From Sulfitobacter sp. SK011 (lineage in GTDB: Bacteria > Pseudomonadota > Alphaproteobacteria > Rhodobacterales > Rhodobacteraceae), in assembly GCF_003352065.1 (NCBI RefSeq), contig NZ_CP025803.1, positions 930,001-994,000 on the forward strand: 64,000 nt of DNA, in the 5' to 3' direction. Of this stretch, positions 37,071 to 60,003 are shown in pieces. The position numbers and the translations under genes are program-made. The notes beneath the pieces were generated by a model. That model made no database searches. It was not told where the DNA came from and saw only the letters and a list, made by a program, of their open reading frames with translations. The stretch's first letter is position 1, and the number at the start of each line of letters is the position of its first letter.

Positions 37071-37145
37071 GCCCGGGTAGCTCAGGGGTAGAGCAGTGGA
37101 CTGAAAATCCTCGTGTCGGTGGTTCGATTCCGCCCCCGGGCACCA
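37071..37145 (+). tRNA. tRNA-Phe (GAA)
   Basis: A full cloverleaf is readable: acceptor GCCCGGG pairs with CCCGGGC, D-arm GCTCAGGGGTAGAGC, anticodon loop CTGAAAA with anticodon GAA, T-arm GGTGGTTCGATTCCGCC, and encoded CCA at the end. The 3' end borders the mobile region that begins right after it, making it a likely integration site. Confidence 0.95.
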
Positions 37146-37383
37146 CTAAATCAAAGACTTAAAGGATGGGTAGATTTCTTAGGCTCGCAGTAGGCTCTGA
37201 AATTCACTATCTTACGCGCTTCCAATTCATGACCTGCTTTAAACATCAGTTCGGTTAGTAGATCCTATTCTGAATGGAAAACAGGCTACTCGCCAAATTG
37301 GTAGTGGGCTGCTAGCCTCCTCCTGCCTGGGTATTGTCGTAACCTTGGGCATCGCGATGCTCTTCAGAGATGGAGAGATCGTG

Positions 37384-38566: not shown

Positions 38567-38585
38567 TGCTCCAGACTAGGCTGGC

Positions 38586-42989: not shown

Positions 42990-43155
42990 CGGGTGGCACT
43001 CCTCATGTAAAGGGCTGACCTCGGGTGGCCACGGGTGGACACCAGGGTATATTCGGGAAAGCGTAGCATAATAATCAGGTGCTGATTGTGCGGGAACGGT
43101 ATCCCGACACCCGCGTAACCCATTGAAAATAATGGACATGAGTGGACAGCGCTGG

Positions 43156-43516: not shown

Positions 43517-43555
43517 CGGCCACTCCTGTCCTGTATTGAGGACAATTAGTCAGCA

Positions 43556-44198: not shown

Positions 44199-44563
44199 CC
44201 TTACAGCTTAAGAAAATTGATTGACCAAGTGCAAGCTGTAGCATGTAATTGTGTTGTTTGGTGCCAGCGCCTGAGTGCGAAGTGGCATGTCTACAATTCA
44301 TCGATTTGCGAGATTCTTACGTGATAGAAATCTCGAAGTATCATTGATACGATCTTGGTCAACCGCCTCACCAATTTCTATCTCGTGGAGTTGTTGTTCG
44401 ACTGTGGCCATAATCCACGACGGCGTCATTCATCTTTAGGTGGCAAAAGCCCCTTGGCCTTCGACCGAAAGGCTGCCTAAATGAGTTGAGTGACCGGAAC
44501 GTAAGCGTGATAAGACCAACTCTGAGCGCACACGTCATATCTTTCATTAAGCCATTAGCGTCT
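44199..44563. other. Gap between island end and first caspase gene, with one possible small ORF
   Basis: This 365-bp, AT-richer stretch has no clear large gene. A 43-codon leftward frame (ATG 44429 to TGA 44298; MTPSWIMATVEQQLHEIEIG onward) has a helical, charged composition but no recognised motif and no clear Shine-Dalgarno. It might be a decayed gene end or a small protein. Confidence 0.25.
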
Positions 44564-46432
44564 CTACGGAAATTCCATCACAATGGCACTGCCAAATCCG
44601 CTGGCGTCATTCCATGAACTAGATGTCTCCAGCGCAGTCATTCTCCTGTTGCCTCTGGTCGAGCTGGCATAGAAAGCATGATCTTCGCGTCCTTGGTGGT
44701 CGTTTGGTTCGGATCGGCCCCAATTCGTGTATGTGAGCGGCTCACCTGTAACCCATCGCCATCCGCCTCTTGGCTCGGGAGCATCTTTCGGTTGGAAAAG
44801 TCCAATTGCCGGGCCTTGCGCGCCCTTACGGTCTGAGTAGATTTTCCAAAACTTCTCTTCGTGCCGTATCATTTCGTAGACAAAGTCGTTTTCAGCCTCG
44901 CTGGTAATCGTGACCAGGTGCCCACCCAACCGAAGTGCGTTCCTCGCATTACTTTCCCAGGTACCGCCAATTGATGCCTTCGTCGCGACATACAGACGAT
45001 TTTCGAAGTAGCCATAAATAATCTCTGACGACCCCAAGTTTTCAACAATCTTTTGCAGTCTTGGGTCGTCATTGAGACCCGACCCCTCTGCCGGTGAATA
45101 CCGTTTTGCGCGTTTGCCGGAAATAAATGTCTTACGGTCAACAAGCTCTCGTGACGGATCAATGCGCAATGCGGTAAGAGTTTCTGTAGTGATCAAGTCG
45201 GTTTCGGGCAGGCCAGATTTAGATTTGAAATCCTCGATAGCCTGTTGAGATTTCTTACCCAGAATTCCGTCAGTGGTACCCGCATTGAACCCTCTTACAT
45301 TCAACGCCAATTGAATTTTGCGCGCCACGCTGCGGGTTACATCCAGCGCAACCTCTTCCACATTTTGCAGAAGTGGTGGTGGTTTGGCAACGGGCACCGC
45401 GGCAGCGGCAGATTTTGAAGTGGGTTCTGCTTCCGGTTTTGGTTGTGCTACAGGCACCCGCACAGCGTCGCGTCTGGCCAAAGCGATTTTGTAGATACTG
45501 TTCTCGGATTGGTCAGAGTATTGGCTTAGGAACCGGTTCCATGCCGAGATAGTGTTGCCGTCGCTAGCTTTTGCGAAGTCTTCGGCCATTTTTTGCAAGA
45601 CCTTTAGTGATGCCGCCGCTGCCGTATCATTGCTGGCTGCAGCAAGCTGTACAGGTGGCTTTAGAAAAATATCCTTACCGGGAAGCGAGCCATATGTGAA
45701 AGGCTCCTGATATCCTTCGGTGAGTTCAAAAACAGTGTCGCGGACTCTGCGGAAAAGCTTTCCCAACTCCAGCCCCGGCTCCTCGATATGCTGCAGAAGT
45801 GCCTTTGCGTAGGGACTGTTGCGGCCTTCTCCGTCCATGGCCAATGTACCACTGCGCGCAGCATAACCGACGAGCACACCACCGGGGTCAATTCTGCCTA
45901 GACCACGTCCAACAGATCTTTTAGCGGATGTTTGCACCATGTCAGAGAGGAATGGATTGTTGCGGCAGGCGTCAACAAGAATGACTTTCACGCCTTGGAC
46001 ACCAGTGACGGAACTTAGCACAGTGTCCAAACGGATTGCTTCAAACTCAACATCGCGGTCGCTACCCAGTTCGGCATTGACTGGGATAAGGTAGTTTGCC
46101 CCGTCGATCTCAATTCCATGGCCTGCAAAATAGACAAAGGCCATATCCGCATCTGAAGCCTCTTCAGCAAAATCCCTTATGGCCAACCGCATCGACCGAT
46201 AATCAAGGTCAAGATGTGTGGTAACGCTGAAACCGATCCTGCCAAGTGCTACGCCTATATCATTTGCATCATTCTTCGGGTTGGGCAGATTCGAGACATG
46301 CTCGTAAGTAGAATTACCAATGACAAGCGCCACGCGTTTTTCCTGTGCTGCCGCATAGCTGAACAAGGGAGAAACAAAAACCACCAAAACAAATATAGCT
46401 TGGAAACGGTTTAGACGCTTTTGAATTTGCAT
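44564..46432 (-). CDS. Exported caspase-like protein with peptidoglycan-binding and C-type lectin-like domains
   Basis: A 622-residue protein with a signal peptide (about residues 10-29). The C14 caspase domain (about 32-265) has the beta-strand VALVIGNSTYEHV, catalytic His105 in YFAGHGIE and Cys156 in LVDACRNNPF. A short alanine/proline linker follows; then a peptidoglycan-binding-1 unit (IQLALNVRGFNAGTTDGILG, about 385-440). The last 130 residues resemble a C-type lectin fold (GGHLVTITSEAENDF; WRWVTGEPLTYTNWGRSEPN; WND near the end). ATG at 46432 follows GGAGGTG. It is the last of the leftward caspase genes, 370 nt after its neighbour. Likely periplasmic; substrate unknown. Confidence 0.82.
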   Translation of the reverse strand: MQIQKRLNRFQAIFVLVVFVSPLFSYAAAQEKRVALVIGNSTYEHVSNLPNPKNDANDIGVALGRIGFSVTTHLDLDYRSMRLAIRDFAEEASDADMAFVYFAGHGIEIDGANYLIPVNAELGSDRDVEFEAIRLDTVLSSVTGVQGVKVILVDACRNNPFLSDMVQTSAKRSVGRGLGRIDPGGVLVGYAARSGTLAMDGEGRNSPYAKALLQHIEEPGLELGKLFRRVRDTVFELTEGYQEPFTYGSLPGKDIFLKPPVQLAAASNDTAAAASLKVLQKMAEDFAKASDGNTISAWNRFLSQYSDQSENSIYKIALARRDAVRVPVAQPKPEAEPTSKSAAAAVPVAKPPPLLQNVEEVALDVTRSVARKIQLALNVRGFNAGTTDGILGKKSQQAIEDFKSKSGLPETDLITTETLTALRIDPSRELVDRKTFISGKRAKRYSPAEGSGLNDDPRLQKIVENLGSSEIIYGYFENRLYVATKASIGGTWESNARNALRLGGHLVTITSEAENDFVYEMIRHEEKFWKIYSDRKGAQGPAIGLFQPKDAPEPRGGWRWVTGEPLTYTNWGRSEPNDHQGREDHAFYASSTRGNRRMTALETSSSWNDASGFGSAIVMEFP

Positions 46433-46803
46433 CGCTCCGCACACCTCCTGACGTTCTTTTTCACCGCAGAATAACACAGGTTTTCTAATTTAGATGGTGA
46501 ATCCTTGCAAGATAGCGAGCGTTTGGGCACTGTTAGACGAAACCTTCTTAAGACGGACTGGTCAGATTTGTAGCGTTAAGACATGATCCAACCTGGCGTT
46601 GTCTGACAAAGCCGTTTTGAAGCGGGCAGCGCGATTCCAAAGCATCCGAGCATGACTAAAAACCCCCATTTCGATTCATCAAGATAAGCCCAGATATCAC
46701 TCGTCTGGCGGCCATATTGTATATTCTTTTCCAGCTTTCGCACAGCAATGTCGATAACTTGCTGTACAAGCGCTGCACCGATGTTGACAAATCCCCCGTG
46801 AAA
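46433..46803 (-). other. Gap containing an in-frame open stretch after the SH3 caspase gene
   Basis: After the TAA at 46804-46806 the same reading frame stays open for 75 codons to a TAA at 46576-46578. The stretch looks coding: LVQQVIDIAVRKLEKNIQYG, TSDIWAYLDESKWGF, then a hydrophobic LVMLGCFGIALP segment. No ATG opens it; a GTG near 46740 lacks a Shine-Dalgarno. It may be a lost C-terminal extension of the caspase, or a remnant of a small membrane protein. The rest of the gap (46433-46575) must hold the promoter of the next leftward gene; nothing else is seen. Confidence 0.35.
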
Positions 46804-48429
46804 TTAAGGGCGGGGTTTTCGCCCCCATGCATCGGCGAGATATCTTCCATACGCCCAACCAGAAATACCTTGCCACTGCACGCTACACCACCGCATTGAA
46901 AAGCCCTCTTTCACTTGGCAATCCGAGACATTGACACCTGTTGCCTGAGGTGGCAACTCGGCGACGACATCATATTTTGTACCGGGACCTGCGCGCACAT
47001 TCAGCTTTTGATTCATCGGATGATCAACTACATGATAGGCCCCCGCATATGGCGATTCCGGCTGACCGGCCGTGCCGCTGTGCAGGTATTTAGCAAAGGA
47101 GTAGCCGCTGATGCATCCGTATGTGACCGCGCACCAACCTGACGAAGAGCAAGCCTCCAATTGGACGCCATTGGCATTAAAAGGCAATTCGCCAACCACC
47201 GGGAAGTTCGTACCTGCCCCCGAGCGCACGAAAAGAGTGTCGTCCGTTCGGATGCTCTGCACGAAATAGCCGCCATTCAGCGCCGGACAAGATGTCCGAA
47301 TGACATTGTTTTGTGAGGTCGGGCTTGGTGTTGGTGCTGGCTTAGGTTTGGGTACTGCTGCAACTTCTAAAGCCTGCTTACGTGCTTTGGCCTCTGCCAC
47401 GAAATGACCGTTGGAAAATGCCATCAGATATGTTGTGTAGGCGCTGATTGTATTTTGCACTTTCGTCGTTTCCCAGAACTCTCGGTCAGCGATAGAAACC
47501 AAAAGCCGGTTTGCATCTGGGGTACGGGCATGGTTTGGATAGCGCGCAATAAAGTCCTCAAGTTGGGCGCGCTGTCCACTTTGTACGGCGTTTAGATACA
47601 CAACCAAAGGGTTCTCTTGAGGTGCCGCAGCCATTTCTGACGACGGCAACGCGACCTCGGGAATAACTGTTCCTTTAGGTACCAAATAAACGAGATCCTC
47701 AGGCGGCTGGATGCGATACATTGGCTTTTGACGCCCATCAGTTTTGTCTTTCACGACTTTCGTTACCTTTTGAAATAACGCGCCAACCTCAAGACCTGGC
47801 TCGGCAAGAAGCCCCAACAGAGCCTCTGTATAAGGGCTATGCATACCGTCACCATCATCGGCGGTATCTCCTGCTTGAGCGGCGAAGCTGACTAGCGTAC
47901 CCGCTTCGCCGTCGAGTGAGATTGGCGCGAGGCCACGCGACACAGAACGGCTGCTGTTTGTACGCTCCATAGTGTTGGCGAAAGGATTGTCGCGACAGGC
48001 ATCAAGCATCAAGAGGCCCAACTTGCCCGCGTTGCGCACCGTGGTTAGGATGCTGTCCAAGGACACAGCTTCAAACTGAGCGGTTGCTTCGCTTGCCATT
48101 CTTGCGTCGACTGGGATTAAATAATTACGTCCGCCCATTTCGATCCCGTGACCCGCATAAAAGACAACAGCCAAATCAGACCGTAATGCTTGTTCCGCAA
48201 AGCCACCAAGGGCGACGCGAAAACTCTGCCCGCCAAGATTTTCATGCAAAAATACCTCAAACCCAAGGCTTTCCAACTTGGTGGCAATCGCGCGCGCATC
48301 GTTCTTTGGGTTCGCAAGTTGCGTTGCATGCTGGTAATCGGAATTTCCAACCACCAAAGCCACGCGCCGTTCGGCAAGGGATGGTGAGCCGATAGATAGA
48401 AGAATTAAGACGATTAAGGCGCGAAACAT
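46804..48429 (-). CDS. Exported caspase-like protein with two SH3 domains
   Basis: A 541-residue protein with a signal peptide (MFRALIVLILLSIGSPSLA). Caspase domain about 21-250: RVALVVGNSDYQHA, catalytic His94 in VFYAGHGIEMGG, Cys144 in LMLDACRDNPF. A TPR-like linker with SIADREFWETTKVQNTISAY about 315-360. The C-terminus has two bacterial SH3 units: about 395-450 (DTLFVRSGAGTNFPVVGELP) and about 465-535 (LNVRAGPGTKYDVVAELP), each with cysteines that could form disulfides. SH3b usually binds peptidoglycan or peptides. Its first 350 residues closely match the next gene to the right. Confidence 0.85.
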   Translation of the reverse strand: MFRALIVLILLSIGSPSLAERRVALVVGNSDYQHATQLANPKNDARAIATKLESLGFEVFLHENLGGQSFRVALGGFAEQALRSDLAVVFYAGHGIEMGGRNYLIPVDARMASEATAQFEAVSLDSILTTVRNAGKLGLLMLDACRDNPFANTMERTNSSRSVSRGLAPISLDGEAGTLVSFAAQAGDTADDGDGMHSPYTEALLGLLAEPGLEVGALFQKVTKVVKDKTDGRQKPMYRIQPPEDLVYLVPKGTVIPEVALPSSEMAAAPQENPLVVYLNAVQSGQRAQLEDFIARYPNHARTPDANRLLVSIADREFWETTKVQNTISAYTTYLMAFSNGHFVAEAKARKQALEVAAVPKPKPAPTPSPTSQNNVIRTSCPALNGGYFVQSIRTDDTLFVRSGAGTNFPVVGELPFNANGVQLEACSSSGWCAVTYGCISGYSFAKYLHSGTAGQPESPYAGAYHVVDHPMNQKLNVRAGPGTKYDVVAELPPQATGVNVSDCQVKEGFSMRWCSVQWQGISGWAYGRYLADAWGRKPRP

Positions 48430-48497
48430 TATTCAATCCTTATAGACAAAAACGTCGCAATGACATTTCCCTCACACATTTCTATAGCGCGTTTAAT

Positions 48498-50132
48498 CTA
48501 TAGCGCGTTTAAAAACTGGATACGCGCCGCCGTCATTCGCGCAACGCAAAGTGATAGCGCATCACCCCCCAATCGACTGCATTCCAGTTCGCGGTTTCCA
48601 ATCCAATTAGATTGGCCCGCAGCGTCAACCCGGTTACGTGACTGCGCCCAATTGTAAGCCGCTGAAAGTGCACCATCCTGATAAGACAAAGGACCAAATT
48701 TACAAATTTCTCGCTCCACGGCGGTTCCGGCGCGGGCGCATTGGAAACTCGGGCTATGGGTATTGTGGCCGTTTGCCGAGGATAGTGAATTGGTACGTTC
48801 GCCCATCACGTCAATCAGACAACCAGAGAGATCAGACACCATACCGTGGCAAACGGTATCGCGCAGCGTTATCCAGTGTCTTTGCTGCGCGCCGGTCACG
48901 ACCGCTCGTGTGCGCGCCATCTTGAACGCATTGCTTAAAGCAACATCCAAGTTTGCCAATAGATCAGAGCTGCATATCGCATTTTCCGTAACCGTGGACG
49001 CACGCGCGCAATCAAAACTAGGCCGCACAATTGACGGAGCGGGTGCGGGTTTTTGTTTGGGTGCCGCTGCGATCTCAATTGCCCTTTTGCGCGACTTGGC
49101 CTCGTTCGTGAACTGACCGTTTGAAAAAGCCGCTATATAGGAATTGTAAGCGTTAACAGTATTTTGTTCCTTGGTTGTCTCCCAGAATTCCCGATCAGCA
49201 ATGCTGAGCAACAAACGTCGTGCATCGGGCGCATTGGCATGGGCTGGATAGCGCGCAATAAAGTCTCTGAGCGGCGCAGTTTTTTGACTTTGCACTGCGT
49301 CCAAATAGGCCACAAAAGCGTCTTCTTGGTAAGTCGCCGGAGCCTCTGGCGCAGCCACCGCAGGGACTGCGACGCCTTGAGGCACCAAATACACAAGATC
49401 CTCGGGCGGTTGGATGCGATACATTGGCTTTTGCCGCCCCTCGGTTTTGTCTTTTACAACTTTCGTGACCCTTTGAAACAGCGCACCAACTTCTAAGCCG
49501 GGCTCTGCCAATAGCTCCAGTAACGCCTCTGTATAGGGGCTGTGCATGCCGTCCCCGTCATCAGCGGTGTCGCCTGCTTGCGCTGCAAAACTGACCAGCG
49601 TGCCTGCCTCCCCCTCAAGCGAGATCGGCGCAAGGCCGCGAGATATTGCACGGGTGCCGTTTTTCCGCTCTATCGTGTTGGCGAACGGATTATCGCGGCA
49701 GGCGTCAAGCATCACTAGACCCAATTTGCCCGCGTTGCGCACCGTTGTTAGGACGCCGTTCAACGACACCGCTTCAAACTGGGCGGTTGCCTCGCTTGTC
49801 ATCATAGCGTCGATGGGGATCAGGTAATTTTGCCCGCCCATTTCGATCCCGTGACCCGCATAAAACACAACCGCCAAATCTGCGCGGAGCGCCTCTTCGG
49901 AAAATGCGCCCAAAGCAACGCGAAATTGCTGACCGCCTAAGTTTTCGTGCAAGAACACTTCAAAGCCAATCTGGCTTAACTTATCGCCAATCGCACGCGC
50001 ATCATTTTGCGGGTTTGGCAGGCGCGCTGCATGTTGATAATCGGAATTCCCTATGACCAAAGCGACCCGCCGTTCGGCAAGTGCTGAGGAGGCAAAAGTC
50101 ATTGACATCAGGATGATCAACGCGCGCAACAT
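48498..50132 (-). CDS. Exported caspase-like protein with two LprI-type domains
   Basis: A 544-residue protein with signal peptide and caspase domain nearly the same as its left neighbour (His94 in VFYAGHGIEMGG, Cys144 in VMLDACRDNPF; SIADREFWETTKEQNTVNAY linker). The C-terminus is different: two LprI/DUF1311 units with paired cysteines, SFDCARASTVTENAICSSDL (about 390) and SFQCARAGTAVEREICKFGP (about 475). LprI domains are known as lysozyme-inhibitor-like. Start: ATG 50132; a TTG two codons earlier overlaps the preceding stop. Translationally coupled to the preceding caspase gene. Confidence 0.83.
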   Translation of the reverse strand: MLRALIILMSMTFASSALAERRVALVIGNSDYQHAARLPNPQNDARAIGDKLSQIGFEVFLHENLGGQQFRVALGAFSEEALRADLAVVFYAGHGIEMGGQNYLIPIDAMMTSEATAQFEAVSLNGVLTTVRNAGKLGLVMLDACRDNPFANTIERKNGTRAISRGLAPISLEGEAGTLVSFAAQAGDTADDGDGMHSPYTEALLELLAEPGLEVGALFQRVTKVVKDKTEGRQKPMYRIQPPEDLVYLVPQGVAVPAVAAPEAPATYQEDAFVAYLDAVQSQKTAPLRDFIARYPAHANAPDARRLLLSIADREFWETTKEQNTVNAYNSYIAAFSNGQFTNEAKSRKRAIEIAAAPKQKPAPAPSIVRPSFDCARASTVTENAICSSDLLANLDVALSNAFKMARTRAVVTGAQQRHWITLRDTVCHGMVSDLSGCLIDVMGERTNSLSSANGHNTHSPSFQCARAGTAVEREICKFGPLSYQDGALSAAYNWAQSRNRVDAAGQSNWIGNRELECSRLGGDALSLCVARMTAARIQFLNAL

Positions 50133-50134
50133 TT

Positions 50135-51733
50135 TCAATTCTCGCTGGTAAATAGGCCCGTCAGACCAGTTTGGCAGTCGCCCTGATGAAGCGCCACGGA
50201 CAAACGGTCATCGCTGGGCACAGTCTGATTGTTCAGTGATTGCAGCAGTTTTTGTAGGTCAAGCGGGGGGCGCGTACAGAAGATCGCCACAAGTTGGTCC
50301 TCACCAACCGGTAGGGCGACCTGAAATCTGATGGGAAAGCCGTCTGAATCCATGGCCAAATTGTCGCTTTCACTCAGTGGATAAAGGAATTGAACAGACC
50401 CGTTTGAGGCCAGATTGAACAATGTCAAATATCCCATGTTTGGGCGGGGCGGGGCAAAATTAAATCCGACAGTTTCGCCGATTCGGTGGCTTGTGCTGTC
50501 TTGCGCGGTTCTAATGCGGACAGGGGCGATACCGTCCCGCTTTGAACGGGTAATCTGTGCCAAAGCGGCGGCACGTGCCACCATCACGTCGGCCCCATCG
50601 CGCAACGTTGTGATTCGGTCGCCGGTATGGTTCAGAACGATCCAAGTGTCGCCCGATTGCTCAAACGTCAATAGCGCGTTGGTGTTGACCTCGCTAAAAC
50701 TTCCCGCCACCAAACCGGGGGGGCGATCACCGATGAAATGGACTGGCACAGATTGAGCCTTGGGAGTTTGCGACTGTGTCGGCATGGACAGGAGGTCCGC
50801 TACCAAGAACGCTTGCTTGTTATCGCCACGCGGCAGAATGCGTGGTTGCTGAGTTTGGTTCATGTGGGCAAACACGCGGTCTTCAAGAAAGCCGGATAAT
50901 TCTGCTCGTGTCACGCTGCCATTGTTGTCGAGGTCAGCGGCACCGTCCAAAGCCTGCGCGAAAAACCAAGACAATGCCCCGTGTGCCTTGCCCTCAAACC
51001 GGGTTTCGGTCACCAGGCGGTCCTCTGATGCGGTGGCCAATATCTGTGTTACATTTGGCAATTCATCCGTATTATCATCGCCATCCGCCGCCGTTATTTC
51101 ACCTTCAATCGGGTCCAGTGGAATATCCCAGACGCCGCCGCTTCGGGTCAGACCCATCCGGGCCGTATTCACATTTCTCGTGAGCCCCGCCGAATGGCAA
51201 CTGTCCATCACCCAGATTACATTAAATGGTGCCGCAGCAGCCAACAGAGCGCGCAGCTGATCGTCGTTCAAGCGGCCAATGCGCGCGTTATCTGGGTCAA
51301 ACTCGTGAAACATTATCGTTTCATCTAACCCGTCTGTGTTTTCGTCGAATGGTTCTGACACCTCTTTTTCCTGCCCACCATGGCCTGAAAAACTGACGAT
51401 AATTGTGTCACCGGGGCGGGCTTTGGATATCATATCTTGCCACCCGGCCAAAAAGTTTTCGACAGTCGCCGCACCGTTTGTCAAAAGCCGATTATCGGTC
51501 AGGTCGATACCAGCATTGCGCATGGAAGCCGCAATGCGCGTCGCATCGTTGACGGCTCCTTCGAGGTCGGACAATTCACCAACCGGAGCCGGGAACGGGT
51601 CAAAATGCCGGTAGTCATCAACCCCGACAACCATGCCAAACTGCGCAGCAATCGCTGGCGCGGCACAAAGGTATGATGCCAACGCCAAAGCGACAGAGAA
51701 TTTTGATTTACTCGTGAAGGACAAGTTCAACAC
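50135..51733 (-). CDS. Exported caspase-like protein with DUF4384-like C-terminus
   Basis: About 532 residues. A different C14 subfamily: FGMVVGVDDYRHFDPFP, catalytic His118 in VSFSGHGGQEKE, Cys179 in WVMDSCHSAGL, and an acidic insert DPIEGEITAADGDDNTDE. An EF-hand-like loop DLDNNGSVTRAELSG lies at about 280. The C-terminus (about 400-530; GETVGFNFAPPRPNMGYLTL, FNLASNGSVQFLYPLS) resembles DUF4384. Signal peptide: SVALALASYLCAAPAIAA. No ATG is available: TTG at 51742 or GTG at 51733 are candidate starts and both overlap the OmpA gene's end; GTG is used. Strongly coupled to genes on both sides. Confidence 0.8.
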   Translation of the reverse strand: MLNLSFTSKSKFSVALALASYLCAAPAIAAQFGMVVGVDDYRHFDPFPAPVGELSDLEGAVNDATRIAASMRNAGIDLTDNRLLTNGAATVENFLAGWQDMISKARPGDTIIVSFSGHGGQEKEVSEPFDENTDGLDETIMFHEFDPDNARIGRLNDDQLRALLAAAAPFNVIWVMDSCHSAGLTRNVNTARMGLTRSGGVWDIPLDPIEGEITAADGDDNTDELPNVTQILATASEDRLVTETRFEGKAHGALSWFFAQALDGAADLDNNGSVTRAELSGFLEDRVFAHMNQTQQPRILPRGDNKQAFLVADLLSMPTQSQTPKAQSVPVHFIGDRPPGLVAGSFSEVNTNALLTFEQSGDTWIVLNHTGDRITTLRDGADVMVARAAALAQITRSKRDGIAPVRIRTAQDSTSHRIGETVGFNFAPPRPNMGYLTLFNLASNGSVQFLYPLSESDNLAMDSDGFPIRFQVALPVGEDQLVAIFCTRPPLDLQKLLQSLNNQTVPSDDRLSVALHQGDCQTGLTGLFTSEN

Positions 51734-52742
51734 GTCGGGCAATTTTGCGACGTTCCTCTTCTGAATAGACTGCGTAGTCTACCAGAGCGGGCGGTTCGCG
51801 TTCGCCTTTACCTTCTACATAGATTTCAGCATGTACCCCTTTGGCCTGTAAGAAGTGTCTGACGGTTTTGGCACGCCGCAGCGAGAGATCAAGGTTAAAC
51901 GCGTCTGAGCCAACGTCGTCAGTGTGTCCAACAACCGTGAGCTTGTGCAACGCATTTTTTAAAAGGAAATTGGCAAGCGTTTCAGCTTCGCGCAGACCGT
52001 CGGCGTCCATTTCCGCCGAACCCGAGGCAAACCTGACGGGCAGATAGACCGCGTTGACAGCGGCGGCCACTGCGTCAGCGACCACGTAATTTTCTTTTGG
52101 CGCGCCGGCATAAAGGTCGGTTGTGGATTGATACTCGTTCTCCTGTTTCCCCTCGGTTTGCGCTTGGACGGTGGCTGCCTTTTCAATCCGAATGCCGCGC
52201 ATTGCAGACTTTAACACACCAGAGGCCTGTCCGCCCCGGGTCACCGAGGCCGAAAGATTGCCCGACAGCATCATGTTCTCTTGCGCCAAGCGCGCAATGC
52301 GATCCGCCACTGGCACAAGGCGGCTGTTTGGTGGAGTCAGTGCTGGGTCGGTGATCGTATCCAGGGCTGCATTATACATTTGCGCCGCTTCACCACGCGC
52401 GCCCCGTTTGGCGGCAATATCGCCGCGGATCGCCTGAACCGCCCAGTGCAGAGATGGTGCGTGGGTCAGCGCTTCTTCAGCGCCTGTAAGGTCGCCCGCC
52501 GCGACGCGTGCCTGCGCTTGGGTTGCCAAGGCTGCCGACACTTGTCCCATTGTTATACGATTGGTTTCTTCCGAGCACCCCGCACTACGGACCATATCGA
52601 AAGCGCTTAAAAGCCCGGGTGTACTGTCGCTACTAATTGCGCTGCGCAACTGCGCTAGGGCGTCATCACAGCTTGCCGCAGCGGCACCAGCTGCCATCAA
52701 AGTCAAAGCTGAAAAAGTAAGGAAACAAGACAGCTTGTTCAT
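51708..52742 (-). CDS. OmpA-family periplasmic protein
   Basis: A 344-residue protein with signal peptide (MNKLSCFLTFSALTLMAAGA then AAA). Residues about 28-200 form a helical TPR-like region with cysteines. Residues about 230-344 are an OmpA C-terminal peptidoglycan-binding domain: LPVRFASGSAEMDADGL, LTVVGHTDDVGSDAFNLDLS, LRRAKTVRHFLQAKGV. It would anchor the module to the cell wall. It starts 11 nt after the cytochrome stop and its end overlaps the next caspase gene. Confidence 0.88.
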   Translation of the reverse strand: MNKLSCFLTFSALTLMAAGAAAASCDDALAQLRSAISSDSTPGLLSAFDMVRSAGCSEETNRITMGQVSAALATQAQARVAAGDLTGAEEALTHAPSLHWAVQAIRGDIAAKRGARGEAAQMYNAALDTITDPALTPPNSRLVPVADRIARLAQENMMLSGNLSASVTRGGQASGVLKSAMRGIRIEKAATVQAQTEGKQENEYQSTTDLYAGAPKENYVVADAVAAAVNAVYLPVRFASGSAEMDADGLREAETLANFLLKNALHKLTVVGHTDDVGSDAFNLDLSLRRAKTVRHFLQAKGVHAEIYVEGKGEREPPALVDYAVYSEEERRKIARRVELVLHE

Positions 52743-52753
52743 GTCTATCGCCC

Positions 52754-55700
52754 CTATTTCATCACGTTGAAAGTCACATGGTTGGTCGCACTTGCACCGT
52801 TGTCTTCGGCCACCAAACTTGCCGCTTCGATTGATATGCCGCGCGTAAATGGCAGCGACCGTTCGCGGGCATAATCAAGAGCTTCGCCTTCCTTCATCCG
52901 GTGGGTCCCTAACCCACCTTCGCGGCAAAGCGCCAACATCGTTTCACCTGTTCCGGGCGTGTCAAACCGGATTTGAAGACCCGACCCTTGATACGGAATA
53001 CGCCGGACCTCACCGGGTTCGAGGAAATTCGGCCCCAAAATCGACTGGGGCAATTCTTCGATATTCTTACCTTCTTCTACGTACAATATCTGCAACTCAC
53101 AGCGCTTGTTCGCCTTGACATCAAATTCGAGCAGATCATTTACATAGACATCCGTTTTTGGAACCGACAGTGCGAGCGTCAAACGGTCCATCGGGAGTTG
53201 CGGTGCTGGATCATAGGTCAGCGGTGTGGTTTCAGCGGGACTATATGGCGCTTGAGATTTGGCAAACGCGTCTGTCACCGCCTTTTCAACTTTGGCTTCA
53301 TAGCCACCCGCCGAAGTGGATGAGACGACGTAGCCATCTGCATAGCGATAGGGGCGCAGGTCGGTTAGGCGCGGTAACATTTCGGCAAAATAGGTATCCA
53401 CCTCTGAACGGTGTACCTTGGCACCCCCGTTCATCCGCGCGATCCAATCGGCCAGCACCACTGTCAATTGCGGGTCGCCCAAACTTCCGGCGCGCGCCAG
53501 CAATGTGTCTACGTCAAGATGAAATTCGCGCGCAAGGCCTGCCAGATCAATGGCGTTGAAATGCTGATCCGCCAGATAGGTGAAAATTTCACCACCCCCC
53601 ACGCTCGCAGGTGCCGCGAGGCTTGTCAGTCGCCCAGTTGGGGATCTATCGGTCGCGTTTAGTTTCGACAATGCTATCAAGAAGGCGTCGCTGTCTGATC
53701 TGTAGATGCCGCTTAGTGTTTCATTGTCCACGTACATTTCTAACAGAACGTCCAGTTGATCCCGTGAATGGCGTTGCGATGTCATCAATACATCCCGCAT
53801 CTGGTCACGTTTGGCGATCATGCCGTTGGCGTGACAATCGAAACAGGATCGCGCATTTTCAATCTCGACCCCTTTGCCGATTTGTTTGTTGCGAAACGAC
53901 ACAATCGACGCAGGACCAACCAAAAGACGGTCGCCTTTGTTCGTTGAAAGATAGTATCCCTGCAACCCATTCGGCAGCGAAAATATCATTTCGCCGCCGT
54001 CATGTTCAAAGGCTTCGGTACCGGATGCGGTGTGTGACATTCCCTCTGGTCCATCGGGATATAAGGTTAGCGACTGCCGGCCTTCGTCACCGGCAAAATC
54101 ATAGGATTTCCAGTAATAGCCGCCGCGCTGCAGATCAAAGCGTTCCAGCATTCGGTTGTGATCCGACACGCCAGACGCACCCGGCAACATCGCTGCGCGG
54201 ACGACGCGGCGCGCTTGGATTTCGCGGTCTACATCAATACCGATGCGTGTTTCTAGATCTTTGATCTGCGCCGTGAGGCCAAGGAACATATCGTAATAGG
54301 GTGCTTCCGATCCAAAATGGGTCAACCAATCCGCGCGCATAATAGGAACCGGCGTGCCCGTTGCATCCGCCACGGCACCCAGCAATGGATCGGTCGCGGG
54401 GTCGATTCCGTAGGGGTAGATTTTTGCCAAATCGGCCCATGCTGCCGGCGAGAAGCCGGACGCGCGGGCCGTTTCAGTAAAGACACCGGTTGCTACCGCA
54501 TTCCACATGTCATGGGTCCAGCCGTAATCACGCATATCAATCCGCACGATTGAGCCTTCTGTCCCGTCAAGCGGCGTCACCGGGACCACCCGTGCGCCTG
54601 TCGACACTGAATTCACATACTTGTTAAATGCCGCATGCAGGTAGAACATCGGATTGCGCAGCGCGCCGGTCTGACTGCAATCAACCACCGCGAGCGGCGT
54701 GTTCGCAAAGCTGAAATATCGATAGAATTGCTGATCTCGTTCATTGATCGCTGAAATATCGGTAACGATTGCGAGCATGCGTTCCGCCCGAGTGCCACCA
54801 GCAAAAAGTGGCATTGGCACGTCTTTCACTACCACAGGTGTCGTGGTGACGGGTGCCGGTGCAGGGGCCGCGGCACCAAGAGCAGTTATCCAGTTTCTAA
54901 GGGCCTCGACCTCTTGCACAGTCATCTGTTTGCCCTTGGGCATGCGGTTTGACGCAATTGATTCATACAAGGGCGATGCATCCGGATTTCCCGGTACCAA
55001 GATCCGTTTATCAAATGGCATATCGGCCAGTTCACCCGTCGGAAACACAGCGCCATAGGTTTTCCCGGGGGCGTGGCACGACCGACAATGGGTCTCGATC
55101 ACTTGATCCGCTTGCGCCGTTAGGGCCGCATCAGCCCCGCTTGGGCTGCTTTGCTGAGGCTCGGAGGTCGTCGCCGAAACGGTCGGGTTCTGCGCCTCAC
55201 AATAGGCATCTACACGCGACATCAGTGTTTTCGCTTTTGTCAGGTCAACAAGATCACCCGAGGGCTGTGCATCAGTAATCGTTGTGCTTTCAAGCTGCGC
55301 GAGTTCCACCGGAGCTATGTCAGGGAATTGGGAAATATCCACCGGTGTTCCTGTCAAATACGCATACATCGCGGCACGATCCGACATTGGCAAGGTGGAG
55401 GTCAGGCGGGCAATTCTGCGCATAGACTTGGCAACCATTGGATTGCCGTTTAATTTGCGTCCTTCGCTCATCGCGCCTACGACAAATGCCTCCGCACCAA
55501 AAACACTGAGCCGCTCGGCGGAAATATCAGGTGCAAAGTCACCAAGCAGCCCTATCTCTCCCTGATAGGCGCGCGCGGCGTCCAGTTCGTATTTAAAGCC
55601 AAGGCTAGTATCGCGCGGCGTATGGCACTCCGCGCAATGACCAACCGCTTCGACCAAATACTGACCTCTTTGCATTTGTGCATCAGGCAAATCCGTAATC

Positions 55701-56209
55701 TCGGGGCGTGCGCTTGTCCAGAAATCAAGAATTGTTTGACTTAAGTAGCTTATATTATGGTCCTTAGATGGGCTGTCGGCGGCTGGAAGGCTTGCCAAAT
55801 GCGCGCGCAGGTCCAAAACATCCTCGGGTTTCATGCGGGCATAGGATGGGAATGGAAACACCGCACCAAAGTAGGTACGGCCCTGAGGCGACACTCCCTT
55901 GATCATCGCATTTAGAAAATCGGCATTCGACCACTTGCCGATACCGTACGTTTCGTCGGCGGTGATGTTAGGTGGGAAAAGCTCGCCGAACTTTGTTGAA
56001 ATAGCCTCTCCGCCTGCCAGAATATCATCGCCACCATCGACCGCGTGACAGGTTGCGCACCCGCCCGCGGCAAACATCCGTGCGCCATTTTCGGGATCCG
56101 CTTGATAATCTGCAAAGGCCGACTGATCAAACAATTCATTTGCGGTTATCTGTGCCGGACCACAGATACCAGCCGCCACTATGGCAATAAAGAATAATTT
56201 CTGGAGCAT
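52754..56209 (-). CDS. Large multihaem cytochrome c with DUF4384-like C-terminus
   Basis: A 1151-residue exported protein with signal peptide (about 1-23). Four haem-c sites are readable: C51-H55 (GCATCH), C192-H196 (HCAECH), C375-H379 (HCRSCH) and C789-H793 (SCFDCH). The first three occur in cytochrome c domains (residues about 30-450, the third of planctomycete-type PSCyt1 style); the fourth lies in a larger domain of unknown family (about 465-980). The last 120 residues (about 1030-1151; LALSVPKTDVYVNDLLEFDV; GETMLALCREGGLGTH) look like DUF4384. Likely a periplasmic electron carrier or redox enzyme. It lies 9 nt after the flavocytochrome gene, so electrons from it are a reasonable source (inference). 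Confidence 0.83.
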   Translation of the reverse strand: MLQKLFFIAIVAAGICGPAQITANELFDQSAFADYQADPENGARMFAAGGCATCHAVDGGDDILAGGEAISTKFGELFPPNITADETYGIGKWSNADFLNAMIKGVSPQGRTYFGAVFPFPSYARMKPEDVLDLRAHLASLPAADSPSKDHNISYLSQTILDFWTSARPEITDLPDAQMQRGQYLVEAVGHCAECHTPRDTSLGFKYELDAARAYQGEIGLLGDFAPDISAERLSVFGAEAFVVGAMSEGRKLNGNPMVAKSMRRIARLTSTLPMSDRAAMYAYLTGTPVDISQFPDIAPVELAQLESTTITDAQPSGDLVDLTKAKTLMSRVDAYCEAQNPTVSATTSEPQQSSPSGADAALTAQADQVIETHCRSCHAPGKTYGAVFPTGELADMPFDKRILVPGNPDASPLYESIASNRMPKGKQMTVQEVEALRNWITALGAAAPAPAPVTTTPVVVKDVPMPLFAGGTRAERMLAIVTDISAINERDQQFYRYFSFANTPLAVVDCSQTGALRNPMFYLHAAFNKYVNSVSTGARVVPVTPLDGTEGSIVRIDMRDYGWTHDMWNAVATGVFTETARASGFSPAAWADLAKIYPYGIDPATDPLLGAVADATGTPVPIMRADWLTHFGSEAPYYDMFLGLTAQIKDLETRIGIDVDREIQARRVVRAAMLPGASGVSDHNRMLERFDLQRGGYYWKSYDFAGDEGRQSLTLYPDGPEGMSHTASGTEAFEHDGGEMIFSLPNGLQGYYLSTNKGDRLLVGPASIVSFRNKQIGKGVEIENARSCFDCHANGMIAKRDQMRDVLMTSQRHSRDQLDVLLEMYVDNETLSGIYRSDSDAFLIALSKLNATDRSPTGRLTSLAAPASVGGGEIFTYLADQHFNAIDLAGLAREFHLDVDTLLARAGSLGDPQLTVVLADWIARMNGGAKVHRSEVDTYFAEMLPRLTDLRPYRYADGYVVSSTSAGGYEAKVEKAVTDAFAKSQAPYSPAETTPLTYDPAPQLPMDRLTLALSVPKTDVYVNDLLEFDVKANKRCELQILYVEEGKNIEELPQSILGPNFLEPGEVRRIPYQGSGLQIRFDTPGTGETMLALCREGGLGTHRMKEGEALDYARERSLPFTRGISIEAASLVAEDNGASATNHVTFNVMK

Positions 56210-56218
56210 GCACGCATC

Positions 56219-57484
56219 CTATCTAAATTCGAATTCTTCAAAATGAACAGACTTAGGCATCTTCGCCATTGACTTTAAACCCTTGAGTATTGCATCTCGC
56301 ATGGTTGCAGGGCCACAAAACCAAAATCCTGCCTCGGCAAATTCAAAGGGAACAATGTCGACAAGCTTTTGCGCGTCCATACGCCCATCAGTCTTACTAA
56401 CATGCAGGTGCAAGTCAAACCCATTGCTGCGCGCAGCAGCGGCACGCAGACGGTCCACCCCCACGGCTTCTTCTGTTTTACCAACACAATAAACGAGGAT
56501 GATCTTGCGTTTGTTATCTTGATTTAAGCTGTCGGCAAACGTCAGAAACGGTGTAATGCCTATGCCGCCAGCAAGCCAAACTTGCGTGTCTTCGCCACGC
56601 CGATAGTCGAACCTACCATAGCCCGCTTCAATAGACATGCGATCACCTACAGACACGCCATTGCGAACACGGGCGGTGTAGTCGCCCAGTGCCCGTATCG
56701 AAAACTGAATACTGCCATCTTCACCGATGCGCGAAGTCGTAAAGGGATGCGGTTCGCGCAGACCCTTTTTGGCGAAAGATATGATGCCAAAGCCGCCGGG
56801 TTGAAGTTTGGTAAATCCGCGTCCCTTAGGGGTCGCGTCAATTATCGTGGCAGCGGGGTGGGTCTCAACATTTGAAACGATAAAGCGGCGCGGCCGGAAA
56901 GGCGCAAGGAATTGCGTGTAAAGAAATGAAAGAATACCAACACCCGCCATCAGATTAAGGTACTGTGAAATCGACGCATTGGCGTCAAATGGCACTTTCA
57001 CAAACAACTGATGCAACGCCAATGCGATAAAAACTACACCCATCCCCCGATGCCCGATGCGCCAGATATGATAGGGTATCAAATCGCGCCGCATTTTTGG
57101 CACACGCTTGATTGCACTTACCAATATGAGAGCGACCAACGCCATAAATGCAATTTTTGCGATGTCCACGGCGGTTTTTGCAAGGCCCGACGCGACGATT
57201 TCGCCTTTTAGGTCCATCCCCACAAATTTATGGAATAATACCAAGGGCAATAAAGATATACCGATCCATTTGTGCGCCACATAAAGACGATCAAGCCCGC
57301 CAAGGGCATGTTCCACTAGGCGCGGTCGGGTCGCCAAGAACAGATTGATTGCCATCAATGAAAACGTCGAGGCCCCCGCACATAACGCCAATACGCTTTG
57401 CAAATTGGCACTACCCGCGCTGATGACAACTAAGAGACTTGGAACCAAAACCCCGCTTAATAAGATCAAAGTAGACATTGCCAT
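56219..57484 (-). CDS. Ferric reductase / NADPH oxidase-like flavocytochrome b
   Basis: A 421-residue membrane protein. About six membrane segments; two pairs of haem-b histidines: VAHKWIG...LFHKF (14 apart) and GHRGMG...LHQLF (13 apart), as in NOX/FRE. The cytosolic half has the FAD motif HPFTTSR (about 235), an NAD(P) site GGIGITPFLTF (about 310), and a C-terminal WFCGPATMRDAI with final FEEFEFR. It should pass electrons from NAD(P)H through FAD and two haems to the periplasmic side, where the neighbouring cytochrome c or O2/Fe(III) could accept. First gene of the leftward operon (G-F-E-D-C-B). Confidence 0.85.
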   Translation of the reverse strand: MAMSTLILLSGVLVPSLLVVISAGSANLQSVLALCAGASTFSLMAINLFLATRPRLVEHALGGLDRLYVAHKWIGISLLPLVLFHKFVGMDLKGEIVASGLAKTAVDIAKIAFMALVALILVSAIKRVPKMRRDLIPYHIWRIGHRGMGVVFIALALHQLFVKVPFDANASISQYLNLMAGVGILSFLYTQFLAPFRPRRFIVSNVETHPAATIIDATPKGRGFTKLQPGGFGIISFAKKGLREPHPFTTSRIGEDGSIQFSIRALGDYTARVRNGVSVGDRMSIEAGYGRFDYRRGEDTQVWLAGGIGITPFLTFADSLNQDNKRKIILVYCVGKTEEAVGVDRLRAAAARSNGFDLHLHVSKTDGRMDAQKLVDIVPFEFAEAGFWFCGPATMRDAILKGLKSMAKMPKSVHFEEFEFR

Positions 57485-57845
57485 AAACGGCGGTTCCTAT
57501 GTTATATCCTTTAAAAACGGGGTCGGAATATTCAAAAAACGAAATTATCATTCATCGTATGTTATCCTACTGAGAACAAATAGCAAGTTTCGTTCTTAAG
57601 ACCAAATTCTAGGTTTCAAATCCGATCACCGCGGCATAGATCCTGCCATCTATCCTATGACTTAGGTGCCTCTAGCGCTTGATACCCAAGGTCTTTGGCT
57701 CATTTACTCGCCACCCTTTTCTGAATTCGGTTTGTGAGGTAAAGTATGGATACAAACAGGTACGAGGTTTGAAGGTTTGGCTTTTTCGTTATGTCTGAAT
57801 TTGTCGTAGAAGTTGTGAAACCCGCAAGCAGAGCCCAAGGAACAG
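57485..57845. other. Divergent promoter region
   Basis: The 361-bp gap separates the leftward ferric reductase operon from the rightward lectin-caspase gene. It is AT-rich relative to the core genome and should hold both promoters. No gene, clear hairpin with T-run, or known operator was recognised. Confidence 0.4.
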
Positions 57846-59693
57846 ATGGTGACAATTACTCAAACGAAATTGTGGAAAGCAACTTTTTACCAATTGATTT
57901 CATTTGGAGGTTTGGCTCTTTGCCTGATGGTTGCAGGGGTTGTCAGCGCAGATGAAAACAAGCGAGTGGCCCTTGTCATCGGCAACTCTAAGTACCAACA
58001 TGTAACCAGCTTAATCAATCCGGCCAACGATGCTGAGGATATTTCAAATTCCCTTGAACGTATAGGTTTCCAAGTCACAACTGGTAAGAACCTTGACTAT
58101 AACGGGATGCGTCTTGCAGTCCGCGATTTTACTGAAGCCGCAGCAGATGCAGATGTTGTAATGATTTACTTCGCTGGTCACGGGATTGAGATCGAGAATA
58201 CGAATTATCTGATACCAGTTAATGCGACCCTCAAAAGCGACAGAGACGTAGAATTTGAAGCCATCCGCCTTGATGCAATAGTTAACGCGATCGCAGATAC
58301 ACCAGGCCTCAAAATCGTCCTTGTAGATGCGTGTCGCAACAATCCATTTGTAGCTCAAATGAAACGCGTATCGACGACGCGATCTATAGGCCGTGGCCTT
58401 GCGGCAATCGAACCGGGCGGCGTCGTGGTAGGATACGCAGCGCGCGGCGGCACCCTGGCCGAGGACGGCGATGGAAGAAACAGTCCATACGCCAAAGCGC
58501 TGCTTGAGCATATCGAACAACCGGGATTGGAGCTCGGGAAGATGTTTCGCCGCATCAGGGACCGTGTTTATGATTTGACAGATGGATTTCAGGAACCTTT
58601 CACATACGGCTCGCTGCCAGGGGAAGACATTTACCTGGTTCCCAAAATAGAGAAAGTTGCCATGGTCGCTCCTACTACTCAACAAACCATGCGCGCTACT
58701 CAGGCTATTGCACCTGTGCCATTATCGCGAGCAGATGTGATGGCCGCAGCGATGGAAATCAATACGTTGCGGGGTTGGTCGCTTTATGCTGCAAAATATG
58801 GTCCGCAGGCCATCACAGAGCCAGAAGTTGTGACGCGCATGTACGAGATGACGCCAAAGTGGGCCGCAAAAGAAAAAGGAAACAGCGTACTGGAAGATTT
58901 GATAACGCCAGACCCCAATTCACGAAAGGAAATTCAGGCTGCATTGAATGAAACTGGCTTTGATGTTGGGATACCGGATGGCGCTTTCGGATCGAAGACC
59001 CGCGCTGGCATCAGGGCCGTCCAGTTAGAAAAAGGCCTGCCCGAAACCGGCTTTGTGGACCCCGGTGTCGTCGTAAGTATAGGTTTGGACTGGAAAAAGT
59101 ATTCGAACGCTGATTTTATAAGCAGCCCGTTCGCTGATCGGCAGTACCCTGAAAGGTTAGCGATGTTGGGCGAGTATCCAGAAATTATCGCGGTTCTGGG
59201 ATGTTTGGGCCTCCGGAAAAGTATTTATGGTGTATTTCGGGGCAGTTTCTACGTGGCTCTGATACAGTCAGGTCACGTCCAATTAGCACGTGCCGAAGCT
59301 GAAAAATGTGGTGTTGATCTTGCCACCATAACATCTGACGCAGAGAACAGATTTGTGGTGAAGATGTTTAGTTCTGATCCTTCCTTCGTAGATGTGGGAT
59401 ACGATAGTAAATCCAAGATCAGCTATAAGTCCGGTCCTTATTTCGGTTTGCGTAAAGACCCGGGTGAAAGCGACGCGGTTTTTGGATGGCGTTGGTACAG
59501 TGGAGAACCGGTTAAATATACAAACTGGTTACCTTCCAAACCCAACAAGAACCATGGTACGAAAAAGAAGCAATACGCTCAGTTCCAATATGAAAAAAGA
59601 GGACGAACCGATCTGAGAAATGCAGTAGCAGCGCAGTGGTTTGATGGCTCAGGCATTGGTCGGTCATTCATCCTCGAAGGCGCGCTACAGTAG
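57846..59693 (+). CDS. Exported caspase-like protein with peptidoglycan-binding and C-type lectin-like domains
   Basis: A 615-residue protein with an N-terminal membrane/signal segment (about 15-35). Caspase domain about 40-270: RVALVIGNSKYQHV, catalytic His112 in YFAGHGIEIE, Cys163 in LVDACRNNPFVA. A peptidoglycan-binding-1 unit (IQAALNETGFDVGIPDGAFG, about 360-405) and a C-terminal lectin-like region (DLATITSDAENRFVVKMF; WRWYSGEPVKYTNWLPSKPN; WFDGSGIGRSF) follow. It is a paralog of the 44564-46432 protein, sharing domain order, but oriented the other way, divergent from the operon. AAGGA Shine-Dalgarno. Codons are more AT-rich than core genes, consistent with transfer. Confidence 0.82.
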   Translation: MVTITQTKLWKATFYQLISFGGLALCLMVAGVVSADENKRVALVIGNSKYQHVTSLINPANDAEDISNSLERIGFQVTTGKNLDYNGMRLAVRDFTEAAADADVVMIYFAGHGIEIENTNYLIPVNATLKSDRDVEFEAIRLDAIVNAIADTPGLKIVLVDACRNNPFVAQMKRVSTTRSIGRGLAAIEPGGVVVGYAARGGTLAEDGDGRNSPYAKALLEHIEQPGLELGKMFRRIRDRVYDLTDGFQEPFTYGSLPGEDIYLVPKIEKVAMVAPTTQQTMRATQAIAPVPLSRADVMAAAMEINTLRGWSLYAAKYGPQAITEPEVVTRMYEMTPKWAAKEKGNSVLEDLITPDPNSRKEIQAALNETGFDVGIPDGAFGSKTRAGIRAVQLEKGLPETGFVDPGVVVSIGLDWKKYSNADFISSPFADRQYPERLAMLGEYPEIIAVLGCLGLRKSIYGVFRGSFYVALIQSGHVQLARAEAEKCGVDLATITSDAENRFVVKMFSSDPSFVDVGYDSKSKISYKSGPYFGLRKDPGESDAVFGWRWYSGEPVKYTNWLPSKPNKNHGTKKKQYAQFQYEKRGRTDLRNAVAAQWFDGSGIGRSFILEGALQ

Positions 59694-59944
59694 CTATATC
59701 AGAAGGATAAGCACAAGTTTCAGTTTGCCGCTGAAATCACAGACGTAATGAACCATCAGATTGCTGACCTGTTCCCTGACTAAGTCCAGTTTTTTGGTGA
59801 ACCCTCAACCGACATCTATGAACTTATCGAAGCGTCGCTCCCGTTGCTGCCGTCGGACCGTATCGCTATGTCCGGTGATACGCTCCACATAGATTTTTTT
59901 GGGTGGCGGCAGTCGAAACGAAGTATCGATGAGAGGGGCGCAAG
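59694..59944 (+). other. Decayed coding-like stretch between caspase gene and IS66
   Basis: In the caspase gene's own frame after its TAG, open sequence continues (QKDKHKFQFAAEITDVMNHQ, then TAA at about 59780, then GEPSTDIYELIEASLPLLPS and RIAMSGDTLHIDFFGW) up to the IS66 edge. It looks like an old coding region with stops but I cannot name the family. It also contains the left part of the disrupted IS3-type orfA. No intact gene is present. Confidence 0.35.
59937..59944. repeat. Target-site duplication of the IS66 element, left copy
   Basis: GGCGCAAG lies directly before the left end of the IS66 element and is repeated directly after its right end (62391-62398). An 8-bp duplication is the usual size for IS66. 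Confidence 0.85.
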
Positions 59945-60003
59945 GTAAGCCTTCGGCGGCGGCCGTCTGATCTCTGCTACGATCCGATGGTAAGTCCGAC
60001 GTT

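What the first reader, a model, noticed from the sequence alone, without database searches (positions are those of the whole stretch)
44564..59693. Envelope module of five caspase-like proteases with a tetrahaem cytochrome c, an NADPH-oxidase-like flavocytochrome and an OmpA anchor
Seen: five C14-fold genes, all with signal peptides and intact His/Cys dyads, with four different C-terminal types (two share the lectin type). A tight leftward run (gaps of 9 and 11 nt and overlaps) carries a NOX/FRE-like membrane reductase, a 1151-residue protein with four CxxCH sites, an OmpA-domain protein, and three caspases. Known: bacterial caspase-fold proteases described in defence (CRISPR-caspase, gasdermin-activating) are mostly cytosolic. 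Inference: this is a periplasmic redox-linked protease system, perhaps sensing redox or envelope stress and cutting exported targets; I know of no described system with this composition. The combination of cytochrome c and caspases is striking but may be convergent.
Basis: partly seen in the sequence, partly recalled or inferred. Interest (0 to 1): 0.85.

Follow-up and report, generated by a model that had tools for sequence, protein, structure and literature searches.

The report
Redox-wired envelope caspase operon
A set of neighbouring genes in some marine and soil bacteria puts caspase-type protein-cutting enzymes that seem to be exported beside a membrane electron pump, a multi-haem cytochrome and a cell-wall anchor, and because the set recurs in many genera it probably works as one unit, perhaps a redox-controlled protease switch in the cell envelope.

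Summary
In detail: fre, cytC, ompA and three caspase genes run leftward (46804-57484), flanked by two more caspase genes. All 7 C14 genes found in this 4.19-Mb genome lie within 24 kb, on a putative tRNA-Phe island. Among 80 cytC relatives, fre is directly upstream in 78 of 78 testable, OmpA just downstream in 63 of 76, and a C14 or CHAT protease within 4 kb downstream in 68 of 76; three loci with usable flanks have no protease. Chance would give 2.5% within 10 kb. A two-haem sister form keeps the cytochrome core and OmpA but has a trypsin-like protease and no fre nearby. cytC joins a trihaem dehydrogenase-type module to a confidently modelled core without a clear PDB match. Best reading: a wall-anchored protease switch under redox control. 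The module is well supported; redox control is inferred. Nine open-access searches found no such system.

The parts
56219..57484 (-). fre: NOX-type transmembrane flavocytochrome (Ferric_reduct + FAD + NAD binding); four invariant His (71, 85, 145, 158) that would fit two b-haems
   Evidence: 8qt6_A, E 1.8e-31; the name SpNOX for this entry is recalled; the four His at 1.0 in 80 aligned sequences
52754..56209 (-). cytC: 1151-aa tetrahaem cytochrome with a signal-like N-terminus, three-part architecture
54875..56095 (-). cytC residues 39-445: trihaem electron-transfer module (CxxCH at 51, 192, 375) like the cytochrome subunit of fructose/alcohol/aldehyde dehydrogenases; the structural match covers 39-380
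53354..54826 (-). cytC residues 462-952: core domain with the fourth CxxCH (789-793); model pLDDT 92.2, pTM 0.91; no Foldseek match at E<=0.001
52757..53194 (-). cytC residues 1006-1151: Ig-like DUF4384-type domain with invariant Cys1037 and Cys1095
51708..52742 (-). ompA: signal-like N-terminus, C-terminal OmpA domain (wall anchor by family)
50135..51742 (-). casD: metacaspase-like C14 protease with DUF4384-type C-terminus; the protease that follows ompA in 61 of 80 loci
   Evidence: (7qp0_A Metacaspase-1, E 4.9e-9)
48498..50138 (-). casLprI: C14 + LprI (lysozyme-inhibitor family) domain
46804..48429 (-). casSH3: C14 + two bacterial SH3 domains
44564..46477 (-). casLec1: C14 + PG_binding_1 + Lectin_C
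57846..59693 (+). casLec2: C14 + PG_binding_1 + Lectin_C below cut-off, divergent from fre
37100..37147 (+). 3' part of tRNA-Phe, putative attL: 48-bp exact direct repeat, second copy 110.4 kb away (genome 1077548-1077595)
   Evidence: integrase next to the distal copy

Best explanation
The run fre-cytC-ompA-casD, with extra caspases, is one working unit: a redox-controlled protease switch held at the peptidoglycan. FRE takes electrons from cytosolic NAD(P)H through FAD and two b-haems to the periplasmic face and passes them to the trihaem part of cytC and on to the core domain with its fourth haem. The state of that domain, set by reductant supply against a periplasmic oxidant or ligand, is relayed to the protease, possibly through the DUF4384-type domains that cytC and casD share. 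OmpA holds the complex to the wall, and the caspases with SH3, LprI, PG_binding or lectin ends act at different envelope sites. Shown: recurring linkage, domain make-up, four haem motifs, dyad motifs, protease exchange in the sister form. Inferred: electron direction, contact between the proteins, gating, substrates, and any stress or death outcome.
For: In 80 loci: fre directly upstream 78 of 78 testable, OmpA domain within 1.2 kb downstream 63 of 76, C14/CHAT domain within 4 kb downstream on the same strand 68 of 76, order cytC-ompA-casD in 61 of 80, any C14/CHAT in the held flank 75 of 80. Background: 161 C14 genes in 126.3 Mb of 26 of these genomes, 2.5% expected within 10 kb; 21 of these 26 have one in the held flank (read). 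A RefSeq-annotated plasmid has caspase, OmpA, ferredoxin reductase family and c-type cytochrome genes in a row. FRE goes with the N-terminal dihaem part: 78 of 78 testable four-haem loci of the 80, against 0 of 10 two-haem loci within the held flanks, which points to FRE feeding that part. In the two-haem form OmpA follows in 10 of 10 and a trypsin-like gene is in the flank of 10 of 10, directly upstream in 8. Protease class (C14 and CHAT counted as one, three rows without protease left out) changes once on a tree of 37 core domains. cytC and casD share a DUF4384-type domain: 79.2% on the set with both forms (A2), controls at most 1.1%.
Against: No direct evidence of contact, electron flow or gating. 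L062, L069 and L070 have fre and cytC but no C14, CHAT or trypsin-like gene was found in the held flanks (L070 has only 2.9 kb upstream). L068 and L074 have only CHAT, upstream on the other strand; in L072, L077 and L079 the caspase is 2-5 kb upstream, in L077 and L079 on the other strand. L148 has its fre-like gene 6 kb downstream on the other strand, and L153 has a dihaem gene but no fre nearby. On the four-haem set alone (A1) the DUF4384 match of cytC and casD is 2.4%, hardly above controls. In most relatives' genomes more C14 genes lie elsewhere. FRE could simply reduce O2 or metal (recalled).
Confidence: 0.45

Rival explanations
1. A periplasmic oxidoreductase: the core domain is an enzyme (for example a peroxide, NO or organic-substrate reductase or dehydrogenase) wired to FRE, and the proteases only mature it, clear damaged copies or answer to the same stimulus.
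For: The N-terminal part is homologous to cytochrome subunits of alcohol, aldehyde and fructose dehydrogenases. The core has 52 invariant columns in 37 sequences. Three loci keep fre and cytC with no protease found nearby. The best, weak, structural rows for the core are cytochrome P460, a haem enzyme (recalled), and full-length cytC had a Pfam P460 match at E 0.18.
Against: No dehydrogenase subunit is among the eight window proteins. Five to seven proteases with wall- or glycan-binding types of domain here are more than maturation should need, and the protease class switches while the linkage stays.
Confidence: 0.3
2. An envelope conflict or anti-phage system: the cytochrome senses an attack-linked change and interchangeable proteases act as effectors.
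For: Caspase and trypsin-like peptidases are alternatives in described conflict systems (PMC7159879, passages). The cluster is patchy and lies on a putative island, with several paralogues.
Against: PADLOC gives only single-protein matches, best 53.8 bits to a caspase model. Described systems are mostly cytosolic (recalled). No vWA, MoxR or EACC1-type partner among the eight proteins.
Confidence: 0.13
3. Chance or island cargo: caspase genes and redox genes are neighbours without common function.
For: All 7 C14 genes found in the genome lie in one 24-kb stretch of a putative island with transposase genes.
Against: The order cytC-ompA-casD recurs in 61 of 80 loci from five named families plus unassigned ones, the fre-cytC pair has a C14/CHAT gene in the flank in ten named families, and one case is on a plasmid. 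Expected 2.5% against 21 of 26.
Confidence: 0.04

Closest known systems
Prokaryotic metacaspases in operons (PMC3501461; passages and section 13 read)
   Same: C14 genes in operons; OmpA occurs in 14 of the 217 metacaspase operons surveyed
   Different: Section 13 names no cytochrome or flavocytochrome; 'cytochrome' occurs 0 times in the main text; its supplements were not seen
NOX-type NAD(P)H oxidases, bacterial SpNOX (PDB 8qt6 and others; the name SpNOX is recalled)
   Same: Match over residues 40-420, E 1.8e-31; invariant His that fit two b-haems
   Different: Here next to a multihaem cytochrome in 78 of 78 testable loci, so the acceptor may be a protein rather than O2
Cytochrome subunit of membrane fructose/alcohol/aldehyde dehydrogenases (names FdhC and AdhB recalled)
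   Same: Residues 39-380 match in fold, and the N-terminal part in sequence
   Different: Fused to a core domain with a fourth haem and a DUF4384-type domain; no dehydrogenase among the eight proteins
Conflict systems with caspase or trypsin peptidases (PMC7159879; passages only)
   Same: Caspase- and trypsin-like peptidases occupy the same slot in different systems
   Different: Here haem and OmpA partners with signal-like N-termini instead of vWA, MoxR or EACC1 components
Alphaproteobacterial pseudo-orthocaspases with trypsin-like and DUF4384 domains (PMC6426788; passages and section 13 read)
   Same: Caspase fold, trypsin-like domain and DUF4384 combined in the same bacterial class
   Different: Single polypeptides with a QC dyad; 'cytochrome' occurs 0 times in the main text

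Membership tests
Peptidase C14 (orthocaspase/metacaspase) | Pfam C14 domain over cut-off | tested here: met
   five of five window caspases; seven of seven in the genome
Peptidase C14 (orthocaspase/metacaspase) | His/Cys catalytic dyad motifs | tested here: met
   for the five window proteins; both motifs by a simple pattern in 164 of 176 C14 ORFs of the loci, 12 lack one or both
Peptidase C14 (orthocaspase/metacaspase) | Proteolytic activity | not testable with these tools
   needs protein
NOX/SpNOX-type flavocytochrome | Ferric-reductase membrane domain, FAD and NAD domains, paired invariant histidines | tested here: met
NOX/SpNOX-type flavocytochrome | NAD(P)H oxidation with O2 as acceptor | not testable with these tools
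   acceptor unknown
Trihaem cytochrome subunit of membrane dehydrogenases | Three c-haem sites, homology in sequence and fold | tested here: met
   the structural alignment ends near residue 380, so the third haem domain is only partly covered
Trihaem cytochrome subunit of membrane dehydrogenases | Partner dehydrogenase subunit in the operon | tested here: not met
   none among the eight window proteins
Cytochrome P460 | Sequence-family and fold match of the core | tested here: inconclusive
EACC1-associated caspase systems | NCBIfam NF047832 over cut-off | tested here: not met
   24 to 58.6 bits against a cut-off of 140 for the five caspases
Known anti-phage system | Matches to the proteins of a PADLOC system | tested here: inconclusive
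   only single-protein matches (caspase model in four of the five caspases, MotB/ZorB for OmpA), none for cytC or fre; library of 2023; system rules were not run
CRISPR-caspase or gasdermin-protease systems | Linked CRISPR effector or gasdermin | not tested
   no such Pfam match among the eight proteins; the wider genome was not searched

The most novel reading that the evidence does not exclude
A bacterial envelope death or remodelling switch in which an NAD(P)H-fed NOX-like pump and a multihaem cytochrome decide when wall-tethered proteases (caspase, CHAT or trypsin type in different lineages) act: a general redox-to-proteolysis transducer with exchangeable outputs, built independently from kinds of parts that also figure in animal apoptosis.
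Probability: 0.25. Interest if true: 0.92.

Novelty: categorically new. Interest (0 to 1): 0.76.

Why it matters
What bacterial caspases do, and what turns them on, is largely open: in PMC3501461 (section 13) the function stayed unknown for 70 of 217 metacaspase operons. This operon names specific partners: an electron source, a haem protein and a wall anchor, and so makes the question testable in harmless rhizobia and marine roseobacters. If redox state gates the proteases, it would be a new way to couple respiration or oxidant stress to proteolysis outside the cytoplasm. It also offers a haem-bearing domain of unknown function. The mark 'categorically new' is for the composition of the system; the component families, except perhaps the core domain, are known, and the function is unproven.

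Tried and rejected
Chance neighbourhood: rejected by the tally. Dihaem cytochromes as a sign of the module: rejected. Profile A1 hits 64 of 385 genomes of the class and 138 of 295 of the family, but in the class the matches save the own genome's, and in the family those save 16, cover only model positions up to about 350; so a profile of the specific part (A2) was used. Cytochrome P460 as identity of the core: not supported by sequence, kept as a weak lead. Relatives outside Alphaproteobacteria: none in the phylum samples (2 of 398, the own genome and one of its family; at most two candidates per genome were scored); other phyla were not sampled, except that the seed search over the bacterial and archaeal genome collection, which kept 80 of 122, listed only Alphaproteobacteria. 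Fold of the core: no Foldseek match at E<=0.001, which does not show a new fold. Plasmids: 1 record of 72,556. Literature: searches found 0 papers; some searches found the four papers cited here plus PMC7475262, PMC8283722, PMC7517822, PMC6710368, PMC4933709, PMC11077975 and PMC8866957, seen in the listing only. No subscription papers, preprints or supplements were searched.

Limits: the loci come from one seed search that kept the best 80 of 122, and 40 of the 80 are Rhizobiaceae, so counts are not independent. Local HMMs were built from the same loci and ORFs were called mechanically. One search's dyad pattern was too strict and was replaced. One search counted OmpA at 63 of 76 with L079 in by error (its OmpA is upstream) and L050 out (its cytC is split), by domain place, gives 63 of 76 with L050 in and L079 out. 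In one search's lines for the family sample, trypsin genes counted as 'downstream' lie upstream; one search was used instead. One search scored at most two candidates per genome, so its 6 and 10 are lower bounds.
Full report
OBSERVATION. Pfam confirms five C14 domains over cut-off, OmpA, cytochrome c domains, and a Ferric_reduct/FAD/NAD protein. cytC has four CxxCH sites; all 79 sequences over 1000 aa counted (78 relatives and the own copy) have exactly four. A uniform scatter would give that with a probability of about 2.5e-13, although tandem duplication can make such clusters. The two genes outside the window carry an F5/8-type domain (NADase_transloc) and PG_binding+Lectin_C.

SETTING. The 3' part of the tRNA-Phe in the window shares an exact 48-bp direct repeat with a site 110.4 kb away. 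A gene with a Phage_integrase domain lies next to the distal copy, and replication-relaxation, transfer-like and transposase genes lie inside. This looks like an integrated element, perhaps composite, as another Phage_integrase gene lies at L164 17476-18783. In G796, a genome of the same genus, the only match at E<=1e-60 covers model positions 38-303, that is, the dihaem part alone.

IS THE MODULE REAL? The seed search with cytC kept the best 80 of 122 relatives: 59 Hyphomicrobiales, 19 Rhodobacterales, 2 unassigned, in 24 named genera; 40 are Rhizobiaceae. Neighbours were scored with local HMMs. FRE lies directly upstream in 78 of 78 loci that hold at least 1.2 kb upstream. Of the 76 loci with at least 2.5 kb downstream, 63 have an OmpA domain within 1.2 kb downstream, and 68 have a C14 or CHAT domain within 4 kb downstream on the same strand. 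The order cytC-ompA-casD is found in 61 of 80, from Roseobacteraceae, Paracoccaceae, Rhizobiaceae, Devosiaceae, Pleomorphomonadaceae and ten loci without a family name. Some OmpA-domain gene is in the held flank of 79 of 80, and some C14 or CHAT gene in 75 of 80. The five without are L013 and L071 (short contigs) and L062, L069 and L070 (L070 with only 2.9 kb upstream). Chance level: 26 of these genomes have 161 C14 genes in 126.3 Mb, so 2.5% would have one within 10 kb; 21 of 26 do (read). Relatedness makes the binomial figure of 1.5e-29 too small, but not the contrast. An annotated plasmid of Neorhizobium petrolearium has caspase, OmpA, ferredoxin reductase family and c-type cytochrome genes in a row. 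CHAT, another caspase-fold protease (recalled), occurs near L068, L073 and L074.

A SISTER FORM. In 295 genomes of the same family the specific part of cytC was found full-length in 6 (own included; three of the other five are also among the 80) and in a shorter two-haem form in 10. Around the ten short forms OmpA follows in all ten, a trypsin-like gene is in the flank of all ten, directly upstream in eight (Pfam confirmed for five of the ten, L149, L153, L156, L157 and L158), and no FRE or C14 gene is found in the held flanks. In L153 the dihaem part is a separate gene just upstream. On a tree of 37 core domains the ten two-haem rows form one group, and protease class changes once, with C14 and CHAT taken as one class and three rows without protease left out (the place of L148 is unsure because of a long branch). 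So the cytochrome core and, mostly, OmpA are constant, the protease is exchangeable, and FRE goes with the dihaem part. L153, with a dihaem gene but no FRE nearby, and L148, with FRE 6 kb away on the other strand, do not fit the last point neatly.

HOW IT MAY WORK. Shown: linkage, architecture, motifs, exchange. Inferred: electrons from NAD(P)H via FRE to the cytC haems; the core haem as the switch; a relay through DUF4384-type domains; OmpA as anchor; proteolysis of envelope targets. A catalytic role of the core with ancillary proteases is the main rival.

DISTRIBUTION. Specific profile A2: 2 of 398 Pseudomonadota genomes and 11 of 121 in the family of the Rhizobium herbae genome, centre included. 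The system is patchy, and alphaproteobacterial in what was searched.

KNOWN OR NOT. PMC3501461 (passages and section 13) reports OmpA in 14 of 217 metacaspase operons; its main text has no 'cytochrome'. PMC7159879 (passages) describes alternative caspase and trypsin peptidases in conflict systems; its two uses of 'cytochrome' were not among the passages shown. PMC6426788 (passages and section 13) describes trypsin-pseudocaspase-DUF4384 proteins in Alphaproteobacteria. PMC8195603 (passages) has 'cytochrome' once, in its reference list. Nine searches of the open-access library found no description of this combination.

VERDICT. Real, recurring, and undescribed in what could be searched. The redox-gated protease reading is the best of several, at 0.45.

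Noticed in passing
window 62692-64000 and on (L085 2693-4558); L085 4510-5124: A CHASE2-guanylate cyclase gene and a FecR-domain gene stand between the window's caspase cluster and the next C14 gene; they might belong to the same cluster.
   Followed up: partly
window 37100-37147 and genome 1077548-1077595: 48-bp direct repeat of the tRNA-Phe 3' part bounding about 110 kb, with a Phage_integrase gene beside the distal copy: a putative genomic island that carries the caspase cluster.
   Followed up: partly
window 37643-43545: Replication-relaxation, HerA/T4SS-like (weak), rve transposase and HTH_17 genes just inside the putative island.
   Followed up: partly
window 44000-60000: G+C of 0.48-0.55 against 0.55-0.61 at 2-44 kb, in line with foreign origin.
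   Followed up: no
L164 17476-18783: A second Phage_integrase gene inside the putative island, suggesting a composite element.
   Followed up: no
L073 7069-7761, and the same sequence cluster in L060, L064, L075: A D-Ala-D-Ala dipeptidase-type (Peptidase_M15) gene recurs beside the caspases in some loci, another peptidoglycan link.
   Followed up: no
L153 6234-9456: The dihaem part and the two-haem core are separate neighbouring genes, a split version of the window's single cytC.
   Followed up: partly
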